From: Zygaena filipendulae
Taxonomy: Eukaryota > Arthropoda > Insecta > Lepidoptera > Zygaenidae
DNA: 64,000 nt
Assembly (NCBI GenBank): GCA_907165275.2
Contig: OU015653.1
Location: forward strand, 8,214,001-8,278,000
Direction: 5' to 3'
Shown one piece after another: positions 9,701 through 55,680 of the stretch; the stretch's first letter is position 1; each line of letters starts with the position of its first letter. Both the position numbers and the translations under genes were made by a program. A model generated the notes under the pieces. It had not been told where the DNA came from. It saw nothing but the letters and a program-made list of their open reading frames with translations, and ran no database searches.

Positions 9701-12700
9701 TTACTATTTGCGAATATGAGAGTTAATAATCGTGAAATGTCTATCGCCAGGTTGCTGGGACCCGGTGATGGAGTGGTGGGCGAATATAGTGGGCGTCGCC
9801 GCCACGTGGCTGCTCGCGGACGTGGCGAAAGCGGCCGAAATCGGCGACCGGCTCGACATGCTGCCTGAGCCGCTCGCTTCCTGCGAAGATCCTTTGCCGG
9901 GGTGAATAAGTTTTTTTATTTTAATGTACTTACTTAACTATACTTATCCCGTCGTTCACTCGCATTTTCACAGAAGAGAGACACACTCTCTTTTTCGTTA
10001 TATCCTTACATACGAGTATTAAGAAACAAAGTCCTTCGTCGCGTCTGTCTGTATGTTTGTCTGTTCGCGATACTTAAAGACTACTGAACGGATTTTCATG
10101 CGGTTTTCACCAATAGATGGAGTGATTCAAAAGGAAGAGTTATACATATAGTTTATCCTGAAATTCCCGCGGAAACACCGGAATTACTGCGGGTGAAAGC
10201 GCGGGGGACAGCTAGTTAGAGTAGAAAAGTTTCTATAAATATACCATAATACAACGTGTTAATGAATTAACTGAAAACTATAAAGTAGTTGGCTCAGAAT
10301 CGACTAGCGAATCGATCGCACTATGTTTTAATATAGGTTATATTTTTACTAGCCCCTGTCTAAATCTTAATATATATAAATCACGTGTCACGTAACTATT
10401 TATGATATGGTCCAACTAAAAACATTTAGTTTTATCCCGGGATTCCCGCGGGAACTCCGAAATTACAGCGGATGAAATCGCGGGGGACAGCTAGTTATTA
10501 ATTAGCAATATTTGGCGCGTACGCCGCCCGCAGCAAAAAAAATCTAACTGGTAGGCGCGGGCGTAGCGCTAAGAATTTCGTAGATAGGTCGCCTCCAAAC
10601 TAATGTTGAATAACTTTTAAAGTATAAATTTTTTCGACATAAAATATATTTGAGTCATATTATTGTTTATTTTTTTTAATGGGGTGTATCAGGTTTTCAG
10701 TTAATTCATTAACACGTATAACTAGTAAAAGAATTGGTTCTTTGCGAAGGGAATTTTGATTAATTACATAGAATGTTAGCCTACGATAGTGTTGATACAT
10801 ACTTTACTAGTCTGTAAAATTTACAATTCCAAAGGGGATTACATCCCGCTGAGTTGTAGTAGATTTTACAACAAGTGCACAAAACGAACCATTTTTATCC
10901 GAGACTTTTAGCGGCCCAAGCCGAAGGCGAGGGCTGATAGTAATGTCGAGGATAAAATGGTTTTGCGGACGAGCTATAAACTCTGCTTTTCACTTCGATT
11001 GTGAGAAAATAAAACAGTAGTATAACATCATTTCTTTAATTAAAATTCAAAGTAAAATTGGTACAGTTTTGAATACTGAAGAAAATTGTTTTTCCCGGCT
11101 TAACGGTATTTATGTCTTAAAAAACACATAAGGCAAATAAATCAACGTAAATATTATAAAATAACAAATTCTATCTATGAACCTCTTATTGTGTTTGGCT
11201 GTATGGCTCATTTTCTTTGCCTTAATATAGATACATTTATGAGTAGATACGTTAATGCACTTGTGCATAAAATTCGATTTCGTGCAGCCTATATCCTGCA
11301 CAAACAAGCACTTTCAGAGCATGACAAGTGAAAAAAAAATTTACAGATTAGGTTGACTATCAATGTGGAGTTGAAACTTACAAACCTAAAATAGCGCAAA
11401 AACGCAAAGTCTATCTTACTATTTATTACTCACTAAAAAGGCTTGTTGTAACAGAACTAGTTTAAACCCTGAAAAAAGGGAATTTTCAGAATACTTTGTG
11501 TAGTTAGGGACCGAACTGCGAATTCATATTATTAGTTTATTCGCTTGTTATGATATTAGTTTTAATGAACCTGTACATCGAACCCTACGAAATATAAAAT
11601 AAATAAAATAGGCGTCTCACCATCGACGTCCGACCGGCGATACTCTTCAAACGGGATTACATAACCGATGACGGCGATAACGTCTGAATAGATCTAATTA
11701 GTTCACGGTCCACATAATTATTATTGTTTAAATTGCGATTTAGAAATTCTAGACGCGCGGCCATGTTTATAAAACACGACTGTGTGTTATAGTTTATAAT
11801 AACTATTGTCTCCGGCGGCGCAAACACCGGCCGATGTAAATATAGCTATTGTATTTAATCCGTAGGGCGCTGCATATGGCGTACAAAAGCCGCCGCGGCC
11901 TCCTCAGCCTCGCACACTGCACCGATGAGCGCGCCCGCGAGAGGACCTCCGCCACCATACTTAAGGTGGGTGGAATACTATTAATAACCGACTGGATTAT
12001 TTCTTAAATGCACCGCCAAGTGAACTCTCTGTACCTACTATCTGAAGCCTTTGAAGGTCGACTGGTAGAGAATGCCGCTGTGGCATTAAGGCCGCCTTTT
12101 GTATCGCGATGTGCATACCTAAAGTTTAAATATTATAAATGCGAAAGTGAGTTTGTTTGTTGGTTACGCTTTCACGCCTCAGTGGCTCTAACTATAGTAT
12201 TATATTATCTGTGGCTCAATGGATCATTATGAAACACGTTTTCAGAAAAATTGCTTATTCATAGTCGTCAGTCATCATTTTCCCCAGTGAAAATCACAGC
12301 TATGTCCTCTTTTTAGGCTTTTTATTATATTTTTATTTATGAAAATAACATTCGTAGATAAGTTTTACTGGAGTGGTAGGCGGAGACCTCATCTTGCTAC
12401 GATCGTAACAAATTTCTTTTCTCATCCATATTCATAATCTGTCATGTACCTATCTAAGGTTAGTGTAAACGCGCCTTATAAGATGGGCATATAAACGGGC
12501 CCTAAGTAGGTGACGGATGAAGGAGGTGGTTATCTATGGTTGTCTGTGGTTATGGTTGGAAAATAAAAAACGTATAATGTGATTTACAAATTCCTTCGTT
12601 TCATTTAATATATCACAATTGGCGACGAAAATGTGCGAAAACGCGTGTAAAAAAAACATGGGCAATAGTTTTAATTAATACTTATAATGTCCAAAGAAGC

Positions 12701-15700
12701 AATTAATAAATTTGCTACTGAAATCAGATTGAAGCGTACAGGTTGGATACAAACGCTCACGAAGAAACAATTGATTGAATGTCTAGTGAATTGCGAAATA
12801 ACATCCGAAGAACAAGAGACATTAGACGAATTGCGAAGAATTCTTCGAGAGTTGGTGATCACAGGCAGGGCAGAAACCTTTCTGCAACCAGACAACAAGA
12901 TGGCGACAAACACGTACAATATTGAAACATTCCAAGGTGGGAATTGGGAATCATATGCTGAACAGTTAGAGTGCTACATGAGCATAAATAATGTAGCCAA
13001 AGAAAATAAAAGCGCGGTGCTAATCACCAAATTATCATCAGCTGTGTATGAAAAACTATCAAGTTTATGCATACCAAAGAAACCGATCGAGTTATCATAT
13101 GAAGAGCTGGTAATAAAGTTGATTAGTTATTACATGCCAAAAAAACCTGTAGTCATCAATAGAATAACATTCAGGCAAAGGAAACAGAAAGAGGATGAAA
13201 GTGTGGACGATTATGTTCTAGCACTAAAGAAGTTATCCAAAAACTGTGAGTTTCAAGACATAGACAATGAAATCAAAGAAAAACTCTTTGACGGATTAAC
13301 CTCAAAACAAATAAACATTACAAGAAATCTTGGATATAGCAAGGTTGGTTGAGAAGGCACTTGAAGACACCCCGGAAGAAAAAGAAAAAACGGAAATGTT
13401 CTGGGTTCAAAAAAAACAAGCTAGTGGGCAGAAAAAAACAAACCCAGGAAGACCCGCCAGCAAGCCACAGTGTTATGTATGCGGCAGAACTGACCATTTC
13501 AAAAGTGATTGCCGGCTCAAGAACAAGTTCTGCAGTGAGTGTGGTTCCCGAGGACACATTTTCAAAATGTGTCCCCGGTTTAAAAAGCATGTGAACATGT
13601 CAGAAGTAGAAGATACCGAGGATAGCAAGCAGACTGAAGACAAACTCGACCAAAATATAGAAACATTATATTTGGATGAACAAGACGAGATCAATGTGTA
13701 TAATTTTAAGGTTAGTACCCTAAAGACACCACCTCTGGTCATTGAACTTAAAGTAAACAATACTAATGTTCCTTTCTTAGTGGATACTGGATCGGACGTC
13801 ACGGTCATATCCATGGAGAATAAGATAAAATACTTTCCAAATGAAAAAATTCACCCAGTAAAAGCTTATTTTAAAAATTTTAACCAAGCAGTAACATACC
13901 CAGTAGGTATCATGAAAAATATGACAGTACAAAGCAAAAATACCACTCAGACATTAACAATATTTGTTGTTCCAGAGTGTAGTCCTATAATTATGGGAAG
14001 AGATTGGCTAAATGCCTTACAAATGTGGCCACCGAAATTTAACATAAACAAATTGGATAACAGGAACACTGATCAGGATATAACAGATATCAAAGAGGAA
14101 TTCCCAGAGGTATTTAGGCCGGGGTGGGGTTGTTTCAAAGATGTAACATTAACTTTAAAAATTAAAGGGGACGCCCAACCAAAATTTTTACCCGTTAGAC
14201 CGGTCCCTTTTGCAATAAAGGAAAAAGTAAATGAGGAAATCAATAGATTAGTGAAAGAAGGCAGGTTAGTACCAGTAGAATATAGCGAGTGGGGAACACC
14301 AGTGGTACCTATCGTAAAACCAGATGGGTCAATAAGACTTTGTGCGGATTACAAAAGAACGGTGAACCCAGTACTCGCAGTGGATCATTTCCCGTTGCCA
14401 CATATTGATCATATGTTAAGTGAGCTTCAAGGGGGCAAATTTTTCACTGAATTAGATTTGCGCGAAGCGTACCTACAATTACCATTAGATTCACAATCTC
14501 AAATGTTAACAGCAATAAATACGGAAATAGGAATTTACAAATATCAATACTTACCGTTCGGTTTAAGTACAGGTCCAGGGTCTTTCCAACGAATAATGAC
14601 TCAAAAGCTGAATAAATGCCAAGGAACAGTAGTCTTCATAGATAACATTTATATTAAGGGCAGCAATCTTGAAGAATGTAAAAATAGAACTAAACAAGTC
14701 CTAAAAATTCTACAAGACAGTGGATTGAAATTGAAACTGCATAAATGCAAATTCTTGGTCAAAGAAATAATAGTTTTTGGATACATAATTAATAAACACG
14801 GCATGACCACAACTAAAGAAAAAGTTGAGCCAATACTGAATATCCCTACACCAACAAACATTACCCAATTAAGGTCATTTCTCGGAAAAATAAATTATTA
14901 TGCTAGGTTCCTAAAAAACATGGCTAATGAGTTGGTTCCTCTTTATGACTGTTTACATAAAGGACAATTTTATTGGACAGACCAATGCGACCAAGCTTTT
15001 AACAAAGTAAAAAGTAGATTGGCATCGGTGGAGACACTATGTAATTACAATCCCAAATTGCCACTGATTTTAACTTGTGACGCTTCAGATCAAGGGCTAG
15101 GAGCCGTTTTGTCACACAGGTTTCCAAATAATGAACTTAGACCAATTGCATTCGCAAGCAAAAAACTTAATGAGACTGAACAGAAGTACTCAACATTAGA
15201 CAAAGAAGGTTTGGCAGTAATATATGGGATAACAAAATTCTATCAATATGTATATGGCCGCGACTTCGAGTTGGAGACTGATAACGAAGCGATAATGAGA
15301 ATTTTTTCACCAAACAAAAACATTCCTCGAATAGCAGCGAGACGATTACAACATTGGTCCATATTTTTGTCAGCTTTCAACTATAAAATACGTCACCTTA
15401 AATCTCAAGATAATCCTGCTGATTGTTTATCAAGAGCACCTATGACAGATAACATAGACATAGATAAAATACATTCGGTATGCTACAGCTCAAAATTCGA
15501 ACATTTAATGGTGTATAAAAATGAATTGACTTTGGCAAAAATTAATTGGCATGACATTCAAAAAGCCACTCTGAAAGACAGTACATTGATAAAAGTTATT
15601 CGGTTTTTGACTGATGGATGGCCGGGGAAACATGTCATAGATGATGATATTAAACCATTTTATACAAAAAGAAACGAATTGAGTATAGAAAGGCAGTGTG

Positions 15701-18700
15701 TATTATGGGGGCAGAGAGTTGTGGTACCACAAAGCTTACAAGACAGCATACTAGAAACATTACATGAGAGTCATTTTGGGGTGGTCAGGATGAAACAGAC
15801 AGCACGTAGTTTTGTATGGTTTCCAAATATAGACGCAAAAATAGAAGAAATATCAAAAACATGCTTAGTTTGCCTGGAGAACAGTAAAAACCCAAATAAA
15901 ATCCCTTTGAAATCCTGGGTCACTCCGCCCGGCCCATGGAGTAGGCTTCATGCAGATTTCCTGGGACCCGTACAGTCAAAAATGTTCTTAGTAATAGTCG
16001 ATGCGTATACAAGATGGCCCGAAGCTTTTGAAGTCAAGAACATGTCCTCTGCTAATACAATTAGTATTTTTAAGAGTTTATTTATTCGCTATGGTTATCC
16101 ACTGCATTTGGTCACCGACAATGGTACAAGTTTTAAGAGCCAAGAATTCCAAGAATTTTGTAAAATGTGTGGCATTAAACAGACATTTACACCACCATAT
16201 CACCCGGCTACGAATGGGGCTGCGGAAAGATTTGTTGAGACTTTTAAGTCTCATGTAAAGAAAGTTGTTAGTTCAGGTAAAACTTTAAATTATGCTGTAA
16301 ATCTCTTTTTATTTGATTTCCGTTCAATGCCACACAGCACAACTGGTGTAACACCAGCGAGATTAATGTTAGGCAGAGAGATCCGGAGTAGATTTTCATT
16401 AATTAGACCACCCCCCATCACAGATGTAATTATTGATAACCAACAAAAACAATGTGATAATTTCCAAGGAAGGAGGACAAATGTGAATTTCCGGGTTGGT
16501 AACAAAGTAATGGTGAAAGATTTTAGGGGCGGAGGAGAGAAGTGGGTCCCTGGTGTAATTTGTGATGTCTCTGTGCCGGATAGGACTTATCTAGTTGATG
16601 TGGAAAGTAAAATATGGAAAAGACATATTAACCAGATGCTACCTTGTTCGCAAGAAATTGATGTTCCGACATAGACTGTTTATGTTTAAGTTATATAAAA
16701 ATGTATTACCTAAGAAGTAAGTGTTTATGTTTAAGTTTTATAAAAATGTGTTACCTAAGAAGTAAGACTTTAAGTCAGTATTATTTGTGTTTACTTAATA
16801 TTAGAATAAGAGCTTTGTATAAGACTCGTAAGTGGGGGAGAATGTCATGTACCTATCTAAGGTTAGTGTAAACGCGCCTTATAAGATGGGCATATAAACG
16901 GGCCCTAAGTAGGTGACGGATGAAGGAGGTGGTTATCTATGGTTGTCTGTGGTTATGGTTGGAAAATAAAAAACGTATAATGTGATTTACAAATTCCTTC
17001 GTTTCATTTAATATATCACATAATCTTTGGCATATACTTACATAATTGTCTGTTCTGAAGGCAACCTCTACTTATTCAGTAAACGTCCTCTTCGAAAAAC
17101 CTCTTGTGTTCGAATGGATGTTCACAAAACTCATCTCAAAACTCTTCCCTTTTTCAGGTGTGCGATATCGCTGGAACCCGACTAGCAGACTCGCTCGCGT
17201 ACTACTGTTGCCGGAAACCAACGCAACTTATGATGGTGTGTTAATTTGTTTCTGTGCATGGAATGAAAGAATAATTCTTTATTTTTGCTTTCATATTTCA
17301 GCATGTGCATTTTGAATTGCTATTTTTTAATTTTTTTGTTTTTTTTTTGTCTAGAAGAAGAATCAAACGACTCGGGAGACTATTGTGGGAGTGCATTGTA
17401 GTTGCATTGTACTTGTATTTTATTATTGTGCAATATGACTACAAGGCAAATCTCGCTTTAGTAACATTCTTCGCACGGATAAGTTATAACATCTGTTTTG
17501 ATTTTTTTTGTGTTCTTTGTAGTGCATGCAATGGAGTTGTGTTATGCTTATGTGAAATTGCATTTTTTATGTCTTTGTATAAAACTAATGTGTTATTGAA
17601 TCATGTTAGTTGATGCAAGTGCTGTGCTGCGATTGGTTGCTGGAGGTTCGCGCGGGGGTGTGGGAGGCGGGCGCGGGGGCGGGGGCGGGGCGGCCCGCAC
17701 CCCCCGCGCAGCTGCGCGCCTTCCAGCGCGACCTGCATTCACTGAGGAGGCTGTCACAAACTTTGCCGGTCGGTACATCCTGTTTTCTTTGCCTGCCCAC
17801 TGCCCAGGCTATTTATCGACGAACTCTAGAACCCTGTAATAATGATTCACTATCAAAAGCTACAGTAAACAATGAAAACTGGTCACAGAAAATATTAAGT
17901 ACCTACGTAAAAAACAATTGCAAGTACCTTTCTGTCCTTTGCAAAAGGTATAACTGGTAATCTTTGCCTTTAGAATATTACTACTTCAAGTAACGTTAAA
18001 TTTAGTTAAATGCCAATAAGTAACGTCTCTGAGTGCGGCAGTTTTTTTTAAATCTTTCCTTAAAATTAAGTATTCATTAAAACGACTCTGAGTGGGGCCG
18101 TTAATTAGTTACCTACACTAAATGTGGCGACCGGTTAACAGCCTGTCCAATCAGTCACGGGAAATTGAGTCACCAAACACGTCATGATACGATAGATAAC
18201 CTACTCACCCTCTTAATCATAATAATATGCTACATTCTTTTTGAATATTCTTTCACTATAGTTATTCTCTTGCATAAATACTTGCACATTTACACACACA
18301 CAGGAAAAGTTCCCCCCTCAGTGTGGAAATGACTAAATGGAAAATAAAACATTTACTATCACAAGATACTTTTATTTCAGTTTAGGTACATATTTACTAC
18401 AACATTATAATAGGTTAGTATTACAGAAAAATATTTTTCATTACTCATACTCGGAAAGTAGGTCTGAAGTTGCCTGAGAAGCGGGTTGAAAGTAACACTT
18501 TTCAGCCCTAGGGAGAATCGCTTTCAACTGACAGCTGGATACTGCAGAAACTCAAGTTTTTTTTTATGTCATAGGGGGCATACTTACTGGCCAGTAGCAC
18601 ACCTAATGGTTGATTTATGTAAAATATAATTCACTCATTTTTTTCTTTAGCTAATTCCTATTTTTATTTTGACTTTCCTTGCATTCGTAATAAAAAGCAC

Positions 18701-31337: not shown

Positions 31338-32009
31338 ATACCTACTAGCTGCATCTGTGACTTCATTCGCCTGGTTACAGATTTTAGTACACAAGCTACC
31401 CTGTAAAAAGACAACATAATATAACTAAATTGCTGTTAGATTAGAGCAAAAGTATCTTCTTAGTTCAGACACGGGATCTTCGGCGCATTTATTTTTCAAC
31501 TTTGAAATTTTTTTGTCATGGACCAGATAAGGGCGGAACACACCGGATGCGTGGCATGACGTGACGCGTGTACGCACCAATTATAATGTATGTAACTATA
31601 AGAAAGATGCAGACCAGGGACCCAATTCTCGCCTCCTTCGAAAAAATCTCGAACTCGAGATTGCTGTTCGATCCCTATGTCGACCACAAAATCTCGATAC
31701 TCGAACCTGTTTCTTCGTATCTCCTATTCTCAACACAAATCGAACTAGACTTCGAGTTTATAGTGTAAAATGTTGCCAGTAAAAGCTTATTCGAAAGCCG
31801 TATCCATTCCATTCTACACGATTCATCCGGAGCTAAAACGGCAGCAGCTTTTTATAGTGTTTAAATAGTGTGCATCGTTTTATATCAAGAACATATTTTA
31901 TATTATATTTGTACCAAAGAAAAGAAAAGTTCTTACTTTTATCACTTTTACATCATCACTGTAATTTTTTTTTAATTAGTTTGCGTAGTACGGATCGTGA
32001 AGCATAGTA

Positions 32010-32335
32010 TTTGTTTTTGTTTTTACCCTTATTTGGGGCAGGCAAAGGGATCGTAATTCATACAGCCTGAATTGGCTGTATAGACTACGATTCTTTTGTT
32101 TTTTTTCTAAAGTTATATTTACATCCAATTGCGTTGCTGAGATGCATTTCGATGCTTAATCGGAACTTTAAGCTATGAAGTTGCAGTTAATTACTACCAT
32201 AGCACTTAATACAGAGTATATTTACTAATACATAATAAATTTCTAAAACTGCTAAAACTGTAACATATGACTTGGCTGTATGGCTCAACATCCCTTGCCT
32301 GTCCCAGATGGGGCGAAGATAAAAAACAACAACAA
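32010..32335. repeat. Inverted-repeat insertion inside the P-like element
   Basis: The left segment TTGGGGCAGGCAAAGGGATC...CATACAGCC and the reverse complement of the right segment (GGGACAGGCAAGGGATGTTG...CATACAGCC) are related over about 65 bp. Probably a small non-autonomous element. Confidence 0.45.
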
Positions 32336-32703
32336 CTTCTGAAACTGTCACGCAGGGTCATTTCAGTGCCTACATTTCTATTTTGTATGGAGAATTTTCA
32401 TTTCATCTTTGCTCGAGAGATGGCGTTGATTATTTAACTGACGTTGCAATACTAGCTCTTTACATGAATCACAAATTATTTTTAATGTATTTTTAGTCAT
32501 ATTTGTCAACTTATCATAAATAATTAAATAAAAACGAATTTGTATGAAATAGAAAGTTTTTAAAATTAAATATTATAATAGCAACATTATGAAAAAAATG
32601 TTCGTTCGTAAGTTTCATTTTACGCAGGTGAAGTAAGAATTAAAAGAACTATTTTATTTTCTATTAGTTCAAATATGTCTTTTGCTTTATTTTTAAATGA
32701 AAT

Positions 32704-33619
32704 TTAAGATACCTTGGTTGATTTTATTGTCAAGTTTCAGTATTTTTCCTTGGTCTTTTTATCATAAAAGCTATTTATAGTAAGTAATGGAACGTTGACT
32801 TTCAGTTTGGCTGTAACATATATACTATATCGACGATATAAAACATCGATGTTTACGGATCGATTTATCGATGTTTTATAGACACCGATGCCGCGATGTA
32901 TCGTTTTCATCCCTAGTCAAAGTTTGACGTTTCTCAACTTCAAAAGTTTTCCAAAACTTTTTTCGTTGTGTTTTGAATTCGGATCTTTTCCCAAATTACC
33001 TGTGATATTATTCTAAGACCAGGCTTTGTTTTATGGATTTTTGTGATTGTGTGCTATACTGTTGACTTCTGCTTTATTTTGGACCCCGACGATTCTGCTT
33101 TAACGAAGACCCCGGCAATTCTTATTGGACACCGATTTATCAGAAATCAGAATGTCTTCAGAAAATTAAGATACCTTGGTTGATTTTATTTTCAAGTTTC
33201 AGTATTTTTCCTTGGTCTTTTTATCATAAAAGCTATTTATAGTAAGTAATGGAACGTTGACTTTCACTTTGGCTGTAACATATATACTATATCGACGATA
33301 TAAAACATCGATGTTTACGGATCGATTTATCGATGTTTTATAGACACCGATGTATCGTTTTCATCCCTAGTCAAAGTTTGACGTTTCTCAACTTCAAAAG
33401 TTTTCCAAAACTTTTTTCGTTGTGTTTTGAATTCGGATCTTTTCCCAAATTACCTGTGATATTATTCTAAGACCAGGCTTTGTTTTATGGATTTTTGTGA
33501 TTGTGTGCTATACTGTTGACTTCTGCTTTATTTTGGACCCCGACGATTCTGCTTTAACGAAGACCCCGGCAATTCTTATTGGCCACCGATTTATCAGAAA
33601 TCAGAATGTCTACAGAAAA
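32704..33619 (+). repeat. 462-bp tandem duplication spanning the transposase promoter and start
   Basis: Copy 1 (32704-33165) and copy 2 (33166-33619) are nearly identical; copy 2 lacks 8 bp (CCGCGATG near 32892). Each contains a palindromic TATCGACGATA / AAACATCGATG ... CATCGATGTTTTA cluster, the putative leader, and an ATGTCT start codon. Copy 2 leads into the THAP finger. In copy 1 the start reads MSSEN and stops. Confidence 0.85.
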
Positions 33620-33723
33620 AAAATGCTGTGTGCCTGATTGCGGTAAGATTAAATTAAATATTTTGCTTACTACTGAATATTATGACAGTAATTTTTTTCT
33701 ATGTATTGCTTGATATTTTTGTA

Positions 33724-33937
33724 GAATCCTACTAATATTATAAATGTGGAGTTTGGATGTTTGTATGTTTGTTACTCAATCACGCCAAAATGGCTGAACG
33801 GATTTGGTTGTTTGGGACACAGATACTTTGTAGCTTGGAGAGGAAAATAGGCTACTTTTTATCCCGAAAAGTATCACATTCTCGTGGGATATCGTCGTGA
33901 AGTCCACGCGGGCAAAGCCGCGGGCGGAAAGCTAGTT
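33724..33937 (+). repeat. SINE-like repeat in transposase intron 1
   Basis: CTACTAATATTATAAATGTG head, AAAATGGCTGAACGGATTTG, AGGCTACTTTTTATCCCG, and a GCCGCGGGCGGAAAGCTAGT tail. A different subfamily from most in the window. Confidence 0.65.
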
Positions 33938-36324
33938 CTATATAAAGTATAGCTTAAGTTTCTTCTTAGAAATAGTCTGTTGCTGTAGTTTCAATATTTT
34001 AGTGACATAGTCTACGAAACAGAGAATTTAACCATGAGGCCAACTCGGGGACTTGTTTTACCAACATCGATTTTATATACTTTTCAGGCTCAGAAAAAGA
34101 AATACTGCATAAGTTTCCTAATCCAGATAAGGATATTGAGCGCTTTCGTACTTGGCTTCACTATATTGGAGGTGCCATTTTGAAACTGGATAACCACACC
34201 ATTTTCAAAAACCGAAGAGTTTGTCATTTACATTTTGAAACTTGTTACCATACTCGGAGCAAATTTCTTAGTGCTGATGCTGTGCCACGCCTGAATTTAC
34301 AAGGTAAATTTATTTTCTTGCTTTAGTTATGTTCTTCATTTCAAATTTCCATTTTTATTATATTTTTAAGTAGTTATTATCTACATGATGATTTAAAGTA
34401 ATAGCAAATTAAAATTTACAGCTGTTCCAAAAACAAGATTGCCTCTTAAAGATCTATCTAATGAAAGATGTGATGCTGGCAGTTCATCTCAAATACCATT
34501 TCTTAGTGAAACAAATATGGTCAGTCAGCTTCCAGAGCAAACTGGTTTGGTTGGAGCAGAGATTGAATCGTCTAGGTCATGCAGAAAAAGAAGTAAGTCA
34601 CATTTTTATTATTTCTCTGGAAGATGAAGTGTATGAAAAAAGTGTGTATGAAGTTTAGGTAATATTGAGCCTCTTGAGGCAAGGGGGGATGGTAATTTTG
34701 TAGGTACGAAAAATCGTCTAACTGGCATGCTATTCAACACCAAAAATTCATCCATGGTTGCCTCCAAAGAGTACCTATTTAATCACTACCATTTTAACTG
34801 CTTCGTAACAGTCTCTCAGTTTGAAAGATGTTGTTCAACTATTGCTACAATAATACAAATATATTTTACAACTGCCATCTACAACAAGTGATGAATGTTA
34901 AACTGAAATGATTGCGATAGAAGTTTAGTAATCTTAAAGTAATAATATGGCATATGCCATATTAGTCAGTATCACACATTTTTAAAATTATGTATATTTA
35001 CTTGAAACTTTACAAATGAAGCAAACTTACATGTTAAGTGGTAAAAAAATAAGCTACTCATTTTTCATTTTCAGAAATACCTTCAGATCTTGATGATAAC
35101 CAACAGCTTCTTGAGAAGCAGGTCAAAAAGTTAAAAATCAAAACTAATTCCTATCAGCAGAAGTTAAAGAAGTCATTGAAACTTTCTACAAACACTGCCT
35201 TCCAAGCTACCTTAAAGAAATTTAAAACACTGGCGGCTCTCTTCACTGTTATGCAGTTTCGAGAAATAATAAAGCCAAAGATGGGTAGAAGATTTACCAA
35301 ACAGGAAAAAGTTATGGCACTCAGTATTTTTAAAATGGGCCCAAGGGCCTACAGATATTTAAATAAAATATTTGTTTTGCCATCAGTGGCAACACTAAGC
35401 AGAATGATGTCCAAAGCATCTTTGAATGCTGGACTTAATGATAATATATTCAATCAATTAGCAAAAAGGCTACAGACAATGAATACTGACGATAGACTCT
35501 GCACATTAATTTTTGACGAGATGGCACTAACACCTCATTTTGATTATAACAGCAAAAAAGACAGAGTGTTAGGGTTTGTAAACCACACTGGAAAGTCCAG
35601 TAAAATAATTGCAGATCATGTTCTTGTTTTCATGATTAGGGGCATCACAAGAAATTATAAGCAACCCATTTATTATTCTTTTTGTTCAGGAAGTACCCCA
35701 AAAGTGATTTTGGTTGCACAAATAAAAGAAATTGTGAAGAAACTACATTCAATTGGCTTTAAGGTTTTAGCCACAGTTTGTGACCAAGGGACAACAAATA
35801 CAAGTGCAATAAATTATTTAATTGAAGAAACAAAAAGAGAATATTATAAGAAAAATATTAGTCACACAAAATCTGTGTTTGAAATAGAAGGGCAACAGAT
35901 AATACCTTTATATGATGTGCCACACTTGCTAAAAGGCATGAGAAATAATTTGATGACCAAAAATCTTAAGTATGAAATGGACGGACAAATAAAAACTGCG
36001 AAATGGGAACATATTACGCTTTTACATGAAAATAATCCCACCTATAAAGGGTTAAAAATATTAAAAAAGCTATCAGAAAATCACTGTAATACAGAGAAAA
36101 TTCCGAAAATGAAAGTCAAATATGCTGCACAACTTTTCAGCCAGACAGTAGGAAAAACTATGGGTTATTTAGCTGGTAAGTTTACATAAAACAGTATAGA
36201 TCTATGGGAAAAAAAAACGCCATACTAGTTTTTTTTCTAGCGTTGTGCATTATTATAATTTAAAATCTTGAAACAGCATATTCTATGAAATTGCTTTAAT
36301 TTTTAATCTTTCTTTATTGACCAC

Positions 36325-36530
36325 TAGCAGCCGCCCGCGGTTTCACTCGCTTGGTTCCCGTTCCCGTGGGAAAATCGGGATAAAAAGTATTTTATGTGTT
36401 ATTTGAGCCTATAATCTATCTTTGTTGCAAACATCCAGATCGGTTCAGTAGTTTTCGCGTGAAAGAGTAACGAACATTCATACATCCATACTCACAAACT
36501 TTCGAATTTATAATATTAGTAGGATTCAGT
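36325..36530 (-). repeat. SINE-like repeat in transposase intron 4, reversed
   Basis: CGCCCGCGGTTTCACTCGC at its left, AATCGGGATAAAAAGTA, CCAGATCGGTTCAGTAG, and TTTATAATATTAGTAGGATT at the right end. Confidence 0.65.
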
Positions 36531-38529
36531 TTATTTAATTATTTACTTTTTTGAAATCACAACGCAATTTTTATTACTGAAAAATTGAAAACGAAGTGTT
36601 TAGAAAAAACTAATAATAAATTTAGTTTTGGTTGTAAGACGGGTCGATTGTTTCGAAATACCTACTTCATTTTCAATTTTTCAGGATTCAGTTTTTCTAG
36701 AAGAGTTGTAGATTCTGGTTAGGCAGTTGTAGTAAGTAGTTTGTAAATGGGTGAATTAAATAATTTCTTTCTTTTTTTGCAGAAAATGGCATACTTCCCG
36801 AGGAAGCAAAGGATACAGCAGACTTATTATTATTTATAGATAATGTATTTGATTCATTAAATGGAAGCATGAAAAATTCTGATCTTCGTTCCGGTAAAAA
36901 GTTGTTAAAAAATGTAACACCTTCTTCAGTACATGAAGACACTTGGGTTAAATCGAAACCCGTTTTTAAATCAATGTCCTTCGTCACAGCAAAAGGTAAT
37001 GCTGGTACTGGAAAAATGTATTATTTCATGAGTACAAAATAAAATCATTTTGGTGCAGACATCTTAATCAGGATCCCCTGGAAAACTTTTTTGGAAGCAT
37101 TAGAAGCCATGGGGTTCGAAATAATTCACCCACGTGCGCAGCATTTGAGGCTGCTTTTTCATCATTATTAATAAATAATATGAGTAGTAATTATTCCCCA
37201 GGGTCGAATTGTGAAGAAGACATGTGTTGCATCCTGCAAGGGTTCGAGGAACTCATATTTTCAAATAAAAATAAAACTGACACGTCATGTTCAGAAATTG
37301 ATTTTGACGATATTGTTAGTGATGAAATGATTGTAGACATTGAAATTAAAAAAAAGGACCCTAGGGTGATTGCTACATTAGAATATGTAACAGGGTATTT
37401 ATTAAGAAAAACTAAAAAAATATTTAAAAACTGTAAAATCTGTAGATCAACTTTATTTAGTAAAGATACAACTAGAAACAAATACTTGCAATGCCGAGAA
37501 TATTTCAAAACAAAAAACAATTTGTACTATCCCAGTGAGAATTTTACAAAATGTGTTTCGGAGATCCAAGATGTTCTGCACCATATTATGAGAAATAAAA
37601 GTAATATTCAGAATTTAAAAGAGTATATGAAAACTTTACTCTACACAAACATCGACACGAAATTTATTCAGTGTGCTCATGAAAAGGAATTACAAGAATT
37701 TATATTTGATTTTTCAAGTAGATTTTTTGCCAATAATTGGTGTAAGTGGACCAATAAATTATTAAATGGTACCAGCACTGCCAAAGATGTTGATAAAACT
37801 GACGAAGTTCAAAACCAAGCTATACTGTACTATACAAAGAGAAGAAAAAACAGAAAATAAATATCTGGAAGCAGTTACTTTGACTGCCGTTTCATAGAAT
37901 AAATGATAAATATATCAAAGAAAATTAATTTCTTTTGATAGTATAAATTCAATTTTTACTGTGTTTGATTTTATCCACAATCTCATCACGTAAAAATAAT
38001 GTGATTATGTAAAAAAGATACTTATTGCTGTTTATTTTTGTAATACTGTATTGATATTGCATTGTATTTTTTTTCCATACTAAAGTTGGACTTGACTAAC
38101 TTAAAATATAATTTCTTCAGTAAAATAATTTCTTTCATTTGTATTCAAATTTTCCCGCTCTTTTAGATCACGAAGCAGTAGCTACAGTATACTATAGGTA
38201 TATAGGTTACTAGGTAGGTACCTAATTGTAATTACATCTTTAGTCGAGAGATGTCGCTCTGTCGAGAACTTAGCTGACCACTCTATACCAGTATATATAA
38301 GTTACTCTATGCTGTCACGCATGACACCGCTATTGGACATTTATGAAGATTCGAATTCGAAATTTACCGCTTCCGACCAGTCGAAGCAGTTCGAAGGGCT
38401 TTCATTCGAGAAATGTCGAAGTCGACATGTCGAGCATTGCTTAACTTGACTTCATCTCGATTTAATGTTCGAATTCGAACTTTATCTCAAGTTCGAGTCT
38501 ACTTCGAATGTGTGAGAATTGCCCCCCAG

Positions 38530-55269: not shown

Positions 55270-55680
55270 ATAATATGAAAGCGCGCATAACTTCCAAACG
55301 ACTGCACCAAATTGGATGATTCTTTTTTTGTGTTCGTTTTTGTATAAAAGAAAACAGTTTTGAGTTTCTGCGGGAATTCCGAAACTCAAGCGGGTGAAAC
55401 TTTGAAACGGGTGCATTGGATCAATTTCACTGCTAAGGAGCTGATGTTATAAGGAGTAAATTAGGCTACTTTGGAGTTTCTCCGAGAATTCCGAAAGTAG
55501 CTAGCTAGCACAGTTAGTCTTTATAAATAAAAATGAATGTTTGTATGTCTGTCCTCTATGCGTTTCGAAACCATTGGTCCGATTGCGATGAAACTTTGGC
55601 GGGTTGTTCTGCCTGCGACCGCAAAGGTCCTGATTCCAAAACTCACGCCGGTGAAGCCACGGGCCACAGCTAGTATTTAA
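55270..55680 (+). repeat. Two SINE-like repeats in tandem
   Basis: The first (55270-55510): GCGCGCATAACTTCCAAACG, then two GGGAATTCCGAAACTC / GAGAATTCCGAAAGTA blocks. The second (55515-55675): TTTGTATGTCTGTCCTCTAT, CATTGGTCCGATTGCGATGA, and CACGGGCCACAGCTAGTA. Confidence 0.65.

What the first reader, a model, noticed from the sequence alone, without database searches (positions are those of the whole stretch)
31615..38529. Candidate P-superfamily transposon with a THAP9-type multi-exon transposase in Lepidoptera
Seen: imperfect inverted termini starting CAGGG at the left and ending CCCCAG at the right, enclosing a gene with a THAP finger and the three acidic motifs FDEMAL, CDQGTTN and LENFFG. 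Known: P-type elements carry THAP-DNA-binding transposases with an RNase H-like fold and TIRs of the form CANRG. Inference: this 6.9-kb segment is one transposon, larger than the Drosophila P element and with introns in conserved phases. The weak flanking repeat (4 of 8) is the main doubt.
Basis: partly seen in the sequence, partly recalled or inferred. Interest (0 to 1): 0.75.

Follow-up and report, generated by a model that had tools for sequence, protein, structure and literature searches.

The report
Broken P-type transposon inside a MITE
A moth or butterfly chromosome carries one jumping gene of the P-element kind that landed inside another, smaller jumping element; the ends first noticed belong to the outer one, and the inner one is a broken copy whose own ends lack the usual mirror-image repeats.

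Summary
The features are real but belong to two transposons, not one. Positions 31615 and 38529 are the outer edges (CAG duplications) of a roughly 945-bp MITE. Forty scored places in the same genome match its left end at 98-100%; 27 of 36 examined sites have identical CWG target duplications, the published signature of NuwaI-group (Harbinger-related) elements. The P-type element lies inside one MITE copy, at 32353-38311 (5,959 bp), flanked by a perfect 8-bp duplication, CTGTCACG. All 35 intact sister MITEs examined show that 8-mer once there: the empty site. A second copy on another contig has the same ends and its own 8-bp duplication, GTCTATTA. The gene encodes a P/THAP9-type transposase nearest to Colias proteins. 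Both complete copies found are broken at the same coding spot: a 49-bp frameshift deletion here, a 106-bp insert in the other. Unusually, the true P ends show no terminal inverted repeat above chance; a 33-bp subterminal direct repeat (82%) lies 40 and 55 bp inside them. A new, defective variant of a known kind; modest interest.

The parts
31615..31617 (.). CAG, left 3-bp target duplication of the outer MITE
   Evidence: 36 MITE sites: 16 CAG/CAG, 11 CTG/CTG, 7 mixed CAG and CTG, 2 other
31618..32352 (+). left part of the outer MITE (its last 8 bases are the P target duplication)
   Evidence: aligned to 7 sister copies L002-L008 and to 35 sister copies
32345..32352 (.). CTGTCACG, left copy of the 8-bp target duplication of the P element
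   Evidence: single at this place in 35 of 35 intact sister MITEs
32353..38311 (+). P-superfamily element, 5,959 bp, CAGGG ... CTCTATG
   Evidence: empty site in sister MITEs; right end shared with the second copy, left end flush with that copy's 8-bp duplication
32393..32425 (+). left copy of a 33-bp subterminal direct repeat (candidate transposase-binding site, inferred)
   Evidence: 82% to 38224-38256; score 36, 0 of 500 shuffles
32699..33619 (+). 454-bp tandem duplication (2.0 copies) covering the putative promoter/5' UTR and the start of exon 1
   Evidence: in the C20 element this unit is found once, split by an insert
33606..33642 (+). exon 1 (start codon, first half of THAP finger)
   Evidence: GT donor, frame and homologue alignment
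33724..33935 (+). Helitron-like insert in intron 1 (approximate limits; the label is from memory)
   Evidence: shares CCTACTAATATTATAAAT with intron 4
34088..34303 (+). exon 2 (rest of THAP domain)
34422..34592 (+). exon 3 (linker)
35075..36175 (+). exon 4 (HTH region, RNase H N-terminal part, first part of GTP-binding domain; FDEMAL, CDQGTTN)
36331..36527 (-). second Helitron-like insert, in intron 4 (approximate limits; the label is from memory)
   Evidence: 22 nt fully complementary to 33724-33745
36783..37860 (+). exon 5 (end of GTP-binding domain, RNase H C-terminal part with LENFFG), interrupted by a frameshift deletion at 37010/37011
38224..38256 (+). right copy of the 33-bp subterminal direct repeat
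38312..38319 (.). CTGTCACG, right copy of the 8-bp target duplication of the P element
38320..38526 (+). right part of the outer MITE
38527..38529 (.). CAG, right 3-bp target duplication of the outer MITE

Best explanation
Two nested DNA transposons. First, a non-autonomous Harbinger-related (NuwaI-type, CWG-duplicating) MITE of about 945 bp inserted at a CAG. Later a P-superfamily transposon inserted into that MITE at CTGTCACG, making an 8-bp staggered-cut duplication, and now occupies 32353-38311. Inferred mechanism, by analogy with Drosophila P: the THAP domain of a then-intact transposase bound subterminal sites (best candidate: the 33-bp direct repeat 40 bp inside the left end and 55 bp inside the right end). 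The split RNase H domain, helped by the GTP-binding insertion, cut the element out and joined it to a target with an 8-bp stagger. Shown: nesting, both sets of ends, both kinds of duplication, domain content, breakage of both complete copies found. Inferred: the binding role of the repeat, GTP use, cut-and-paste. The window copy could now encode at most a 594-aa protein (arithmetic from the exon coordinates) with THAP, RNase H-N and GTP-binding parts but without LENFFG, so it should not be an active transposase. Whether it acts as a repressor, like truncated Drosophila P proteins, is untested.
For: Left end at 31615 recurs in 40 scored places (window included) at 98-100%. Sister copies are about 945-bp elements joining the window's left MITE part directly to 38312 onward (7 copies; 35 copies). 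In 35 of 35 intact sister MITEs CTGTCACG stands once at the joint; the window has it on both sides of 32353-38311. The second P copy (C20:2075714-2085488) matches up to exactly 38311 and is flanked flush by GTCTATTA on both sides. Transposase: PF05485, PF21787, PF21788 and PF21789 over cut-off; PDB 6p5a P transposase E 1.9e-35 with the three acidic motifs aligned, the third in a stretch that is weak on its own; 161 homologues, best Colias eurytheme. CWG duplications; two clean empty sites with a single CWG; CWG as NuwaI signature from passages of PMC4482050.
Against: No TIR above chance at the P ends (469 of 500 shuffles reach the inverted score; 3 of 13 and 10 of 31 positions identical), whereas the P elements I saw described have TIRs of 13-31 bp or much longer (some of them imperfect). 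The HTH domain PF12017 stays below its cut-off (19.3-20.8 vs 23 bits). Only two complete P copies exist to define the ends. 9 of 36 MITE sites do not show identical triplets. No autonomous partner for the MITE was found: the PF13359 search did not complete.
Confidence: 0.95

Rival explanations
1. One reading: one 6.9-kb P transposon from 31615 to 38529, with the about 950-bp copies being its internal-deletion derivatives (like Drosophila KP elements).
For: The small copies share both termini and have no other interior; I held this view briefly.
Against: The small copies carry 3-bp CWG and not 8-bp duplications. The 'deletion' would have to remove exactly one copy of a direct 8-mer in 35 of 35 copies. 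The second gene copy lacks these termini and has its own 8-bp duplication at the positions equal to 32353/38311.
Confidence: 0.02
2. A domesticated THAP9-like host gene rather than a transposon.
For: Low copy number (two complete copies) and multi-exon structure.
Against: Two copies at unrelated sites with different 8-bp duplications, 0.42% apart over 5,277 aligned bp, both with disrupted frames.
Confidence: 0.02
3. On the missing TIRs only (this does not compete with the nesting): the P element had ordinary TIRs, and both present copies descend from one source with a damaged or replaced end that was mobilised once more by a transposase from another copy.
For: Only two complete copies, 0.42% apart, with the same ends; another P family in the same genome has 45-bp perfect TIRs.
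Against: At least one transposition used the present ends, since both copies have perfect 8-bp duplications flush with them.
Confidence: 0.3

Closest known systems
P element superfamily (Drosophila P, PMC7776569; Anopheles AgaP families, PMC1562414; zebrafish Pdre2, PMC10983969; passages seen)
   Same: THAP, RNase H-N, GTP-binding insertion and RNase H-C domains; 8-bp target duplication; multi-exon gene (AgaP families have three or four putative exons); AgaP4 at 7,545 bp shows that larger elements are known.
   Different: No TIR above chance, while Drosophila P has 31 bp, AgaP 27-31 bp (two families with 6-8 mismatches) and Pdre2 13 bp; a 33-bp subterminal direct repeat; five exons; both complete copies found are defective.
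P transposases annotated in Lepidoptera (Colias eurytheme P0001 and P0005, Heliothis, Plutella and others)
   Same: 60% identity over 90% of the query for P0001; groups with the two Colias proteins (3 rows, 100/99).
   Different: Their element ends could not be read here; the window copy is frameshifted.
NuwaI group of PHIS transposons (PMC4482050, passages)
   Same: The outer MITE has 3-bp CWG duplications and two clean single-CWG empty sites.
   Different: No transposase of that group was linked to this MITE.
P nested in Galileo, D. willistoni (PMC4168063, passages)
   Same: A P element inside another DNA transposon has been reported.
   Different: There the host element is itself P-superfamily and the P duplication is described as possibly imperfect; here the host is a CWG MITE and the duplication is perfect.

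Membership tests
P element superfamily (inner element) | P-type transposase: THAP, RNase H split by a GTP-binding domain, acidic motifs | tested here: met
   LENFFG is out of frame in this copy, and the HTH domain is below its cut-off
P element superfamily (inner element) | 8-bp target site duplication | tested here: met
   CTGTCACG with 35 of 35 intact sister empty sites; GTCTATTA at the C20 copy
P element superfamily (inner element) | terminal inverted repeats (13-31 bp or longer in the members I saw described) | tested here: not met
   469 of 500 shuffles reach the inverted score; 3 of 13 and 10 of 31 positions identical. Filed therefore as a P-type variant, not a standard P element
P element superfamily (inner element) | placement in a P/THAP9 tree | tested here: inconclusive
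   A tree of 41 chosen homologues (of 120 listed) plus the window's exon 4 puts it with two Colias proteins; Drosophila P and vertebrate THAP9 were not in it
P element superfamily (inner element) | excision and integration activity, GTP dependence | not testable with these tools
   bench assay needed; this copy is broken
NuwaI/PHIS MITE (outer element) | 5'-CWG-3' target duplication | tested here: met
   27 of 36 sites with identical CWG triplets; left-right association Fisher p 0.0008 over 34 sites; two clean empty sites of three spanning matches
NuwaI/PHIS MITE (outer element) | terminal inverted repeats | tested here: met
   0 of 500 shuffles
NuwaI/PHIS MITE (outer element) | related autonomous element with PHIS transposase and Myb/SANT protein | not tested
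   the search for PF13359 did not complete

The most novel reading that the evidence does not exclude
A lineage of lepidopteran P-superfamily transposons has lost terminal inverted repeats and is recognised through a quasi-palindromic subterminal direct repeat (core CATCTTTNNTCGAGAGATG) placed asymmetrically 40 and 55 bp from ends that share little beyond CA..G, yet still integrates with a precise 8-bp duplication.
Probability: 0.35. Interest if true: 0.5.

Novelty: new variant of a known kind. Interest (0 to 1): 0.35.

Why it matters
It corrects the boundaries: anyone using 31615/38529 as P ends would test the wrong DNA. It also gives a clean natural experiment, with 35 sister MITEs as empty sites, showing P-type integration with an 8-bp duplication in Lepidoptera. 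If the missing TIRs hold in relatives, it would show that a P-type transposase can work from subterminal sites with almost no symmetry at the cut ends, which bears on how the P transposase pairs its two ends.

Tried and rejected
(1) A short intron at 37018-37058 joining two exons in frame: rejected, because homologues have about 30 more residues there and the C20 copy shows those coding bases plus a 106-bp insert. (2) That the small copies had no target duplication at all (after): rejected when CTG/CTG pairs appeared. (3) KP-like deletion derivatives: rejected. (4) P-derived MITEs sharing the P ends: none found; each P-end probe matched two places. (5) Relatives in viral contigs, asked with exon 4: none. 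(6) Ends of the 838-aa P family (L065, L066): not resolved. (7) An autonomous partner of the MITE: the PF13359 search did not complete. (8) Host species: the ribose-5-phosphate isomerase at 27333-28157 matches the named lepidopteran entries at 76-89% identity; the top E-value is a longer beetle entry at 60%. Lepidoptera, no species named. (9) Papers: searches, read as listings, showed no title or abstract about this element or a TIR-less P element. Only those searches support that statement, and the library lacks most subscription journals.
Full report
What is in the sequence. Exons 33606-33642, 34088-34303, 34422-34592, 35075-36175 and 36783 onward have GT/AG borders at the four introns and give a continuous protein of 579 residues up to 36995; exon 5 runs on to 37860 but is frameshifted at 37010/37011 (below). 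Pfam, on a conceptual protein read through that place, finds THAP (41.7 bits, cut-off 23.9), TNP-like RNase H-N (119), TNP-like GTP-binding domain (64) and RNase H-C (49.5) over cut-off. THAP, RNase H-N, the GTP-binding domain and RNase H-C also pass on single exon pieces. The HTH domain PF12017 is below its cut-off (19.3-20.8 of 23). The only solved relative at E 0.001 is the Drosophila P transposase (6p5a, E 1.9e-35), with FDEM and SDLGT aligned to FDEM and CDQGT, and, in a second stretch weak on its own (i-Evalue 3.8), LNQDIVEHFFG to LNQDPLENFFG. That these carry the catalytic Asp, Asp and Glu of P is recalled. Of 161 homologues, the best is from Colias eurytheme (60% identity over 90%). 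In a tree of 41 of the 120 listed homologues plus the window's exon 4, the window groups with two Colias eurytheme proteins (3 rows, 100/99) within a set of 8 lepidopteran rows (100/99); which Colias protein is nearer is not settled (87/28).

The outer termini are not the P ends. A 201-bp probe across 31615 found 40 scored places in the window's own genome (233 candidates in the first look, so a lower bound). The 39 others match at 98-100% and begin between positions equal to 31604 and 31617. Seven aligned copies (L002-L008) join the left MITE part, up to window 32354, directly to 38312 onward and lack everything between; the 35 full-length copies extracted from L002-L039 show the same joint. 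Flanks of 36 copies (the window included) show the terminal triplet CAG on both sides in 16, CTG on both sides in 11, one of each in 7, and another right-hand triplet in 2. Left and right are associated (Fisher p 0.0008 over the 34 CAG/CTG sites). Loci dropped before these counts: L027, L029 and L033 (rearranged or no right end found) and L040 (same place as L008). Of 33 flank pairs searched against the loci in hand, three had spanning matches. Two are clean: L018 in L005 with a single CTG, and L036 in window 55518-55674 with a single CAG. The third (L023 in L003) is too diverged to read. CWG is the target duplication published for the NuwaI group of PHIS transposons (PMC4482050, passages seen). 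Some copies stand head to tail, sharing one CWG (L008, L031, L037).

The true P ends. In 35 of 35 intact sister MITEs the sequence reads straight through a single CTGTCACG at the joint. In the window that 8-mer stands at 32345-32352 and again at 38312-38319, so 32353-38311 is the insertion. Independent proof comes from contig C20, where a copy spans 2075714-2085488. On the right it matches the window up to exactly 38311 and then diverges. On the left the probe itself began at 32353, so that end rests on the different flank and on the 8-mer GTCTATTA, which stands flush with both ends. The C20 copy begins CAGAG where the window has CAGGG. Each P-end probe matched two places in the genome; a third, 91% identical fragment of the gene lies at C20:2010893. 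The two copies differ by 22 mismatches over 5,277 aligned bases, gaps not counted (0.42%). The C20 copy spans 9,775 bp because it carries other inserts; the window copy has a 454-bp tandem duplication over its putative promoter and first exon. The window MITE differs from the majority base at 39 of 932 compared positions; its 35 sisters average 0.45% (range 0 to 4.0%), and many of the window's differences are shared with two or three sisters, so it belongs to an older branch.

The copies are broken. At 37010/37011 the window lacks 155 bases that the C20 copy has. Of these, 106 are an insert bounded by a direct repeat in C20, leaving 49 coding bases lost from the window. The frame then closes at 37042; the remaining product would be 594 aa (arithmetic from the exon coordinates) without LENFFG. 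The C20 frame is interrupted by its insert at the same spot. No intact copy of this family was found.

The odd feature. The P ends, CAGGGTCATTT... and, read inward from the right, CATAGAGTAAC..., are not inverted repeats above chance: 469 of 500 shuffles reach the best inverted score, and 3 of 13, 6 of 20 and 10 of 31 positions are identical, reached by 3618, 2293 and 1681 of 5000 random window pairs. Instead there is a 33-bp direct repeat, 82% identical, at 32393-32425 and 38224-38256 (score 36, 0 of 500 shuffles), identical in the C20 copy. Its core CATCTTTNNTCGAGAGATG occurs only at these two places in the window (up to 2 mismatches; the pattern was taken from them, so this is not independent). 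The spacing from the ends, 40 and 55 bp, is uneven. Drosophila P also has uneven spacing of its 10-bp transposase sites inside 31-bp TIRs (PMC7776569, passages). A role as binding site is inferred, not shown. For contrast, another P family in the same genome (L063, L064; 3,603 bp, 99.7% identical) has 45-bp perfect TIRs and 8-bp duplications GTTTCTAC and TTATCTGT, and in L063 an open frame of 902 aa with five P-type Pfam domains over cut-off, the THAP match lacking its first 19 positions.

Verdict. P elements are listed among the widespread superfamilies of arthropods (PMC6327564, passages), and P transposases are annotated in many Lepidoptera, so the gene is not a surprise. What the tools add is the nesting, the exact ends, the defective state and the absence of TIRs. 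The searches named under Tried and rejected showed no description of this element.

Noticed in passing
L063 1773-5375 (G000:C5) and L064 (G000:C10): Another P-superfamily family: 3,603 bp, 45-bp perfect TIRs, 8-bp duplications, 99.7% identical copies, open 902-aa frame in L063; four places have open frames of 902-903 aa. A possibly active lepidopteran P element.
   Followed up: partly
G000, 59 matches to PF21787: The genome holds dozens of P-type transposase loci, several with long open frames (761-903 aa) and sets with repeated 251-266-aa frames that may be truncated copies.
   Followed up: partly
L065 and L066: An 838-aa P-type frame in two 99.7% identical copies sharing a right end; left end and target duplication not resolved.
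   Followed up: partly
window 13315-16671 (and the frame before it, 12675-13349): Ty3/gypsy-like retrotransposon frame with protease, reverse transcriptase, RNase H and integrase domains; the shorter frame before it matches no Pfam family.
   Followed up: no
L008, L031, L037: Head-to-tail MITE copies sharing a single CWG at the joint, as if one copy had inserted at the CWG edge of another.
   Followed up: no
MITE sites L005, L011, L018, L023, L028, L032, L037: Mixed CAG/CTG duplications in 7 of 36 sites; in L018 the empty site is CTG while the left side of the filled site is CAG, so one base of the triplet may come from the element or from mismatch repair.
   Followed up: no
window 33724-33935 and 36331-36527: Two Helitron-like inserts (label from memory) in opposite orientation enlarge introns 1 and 4.
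   Followed up: no
window 37010/37011 and L044 6734-6888: Both P copies are disrupted at the same coding spot, by a deletion in one and an insert in the other; perhaps the window deletion removed a shared insert with its flank.
   Followed up: partly
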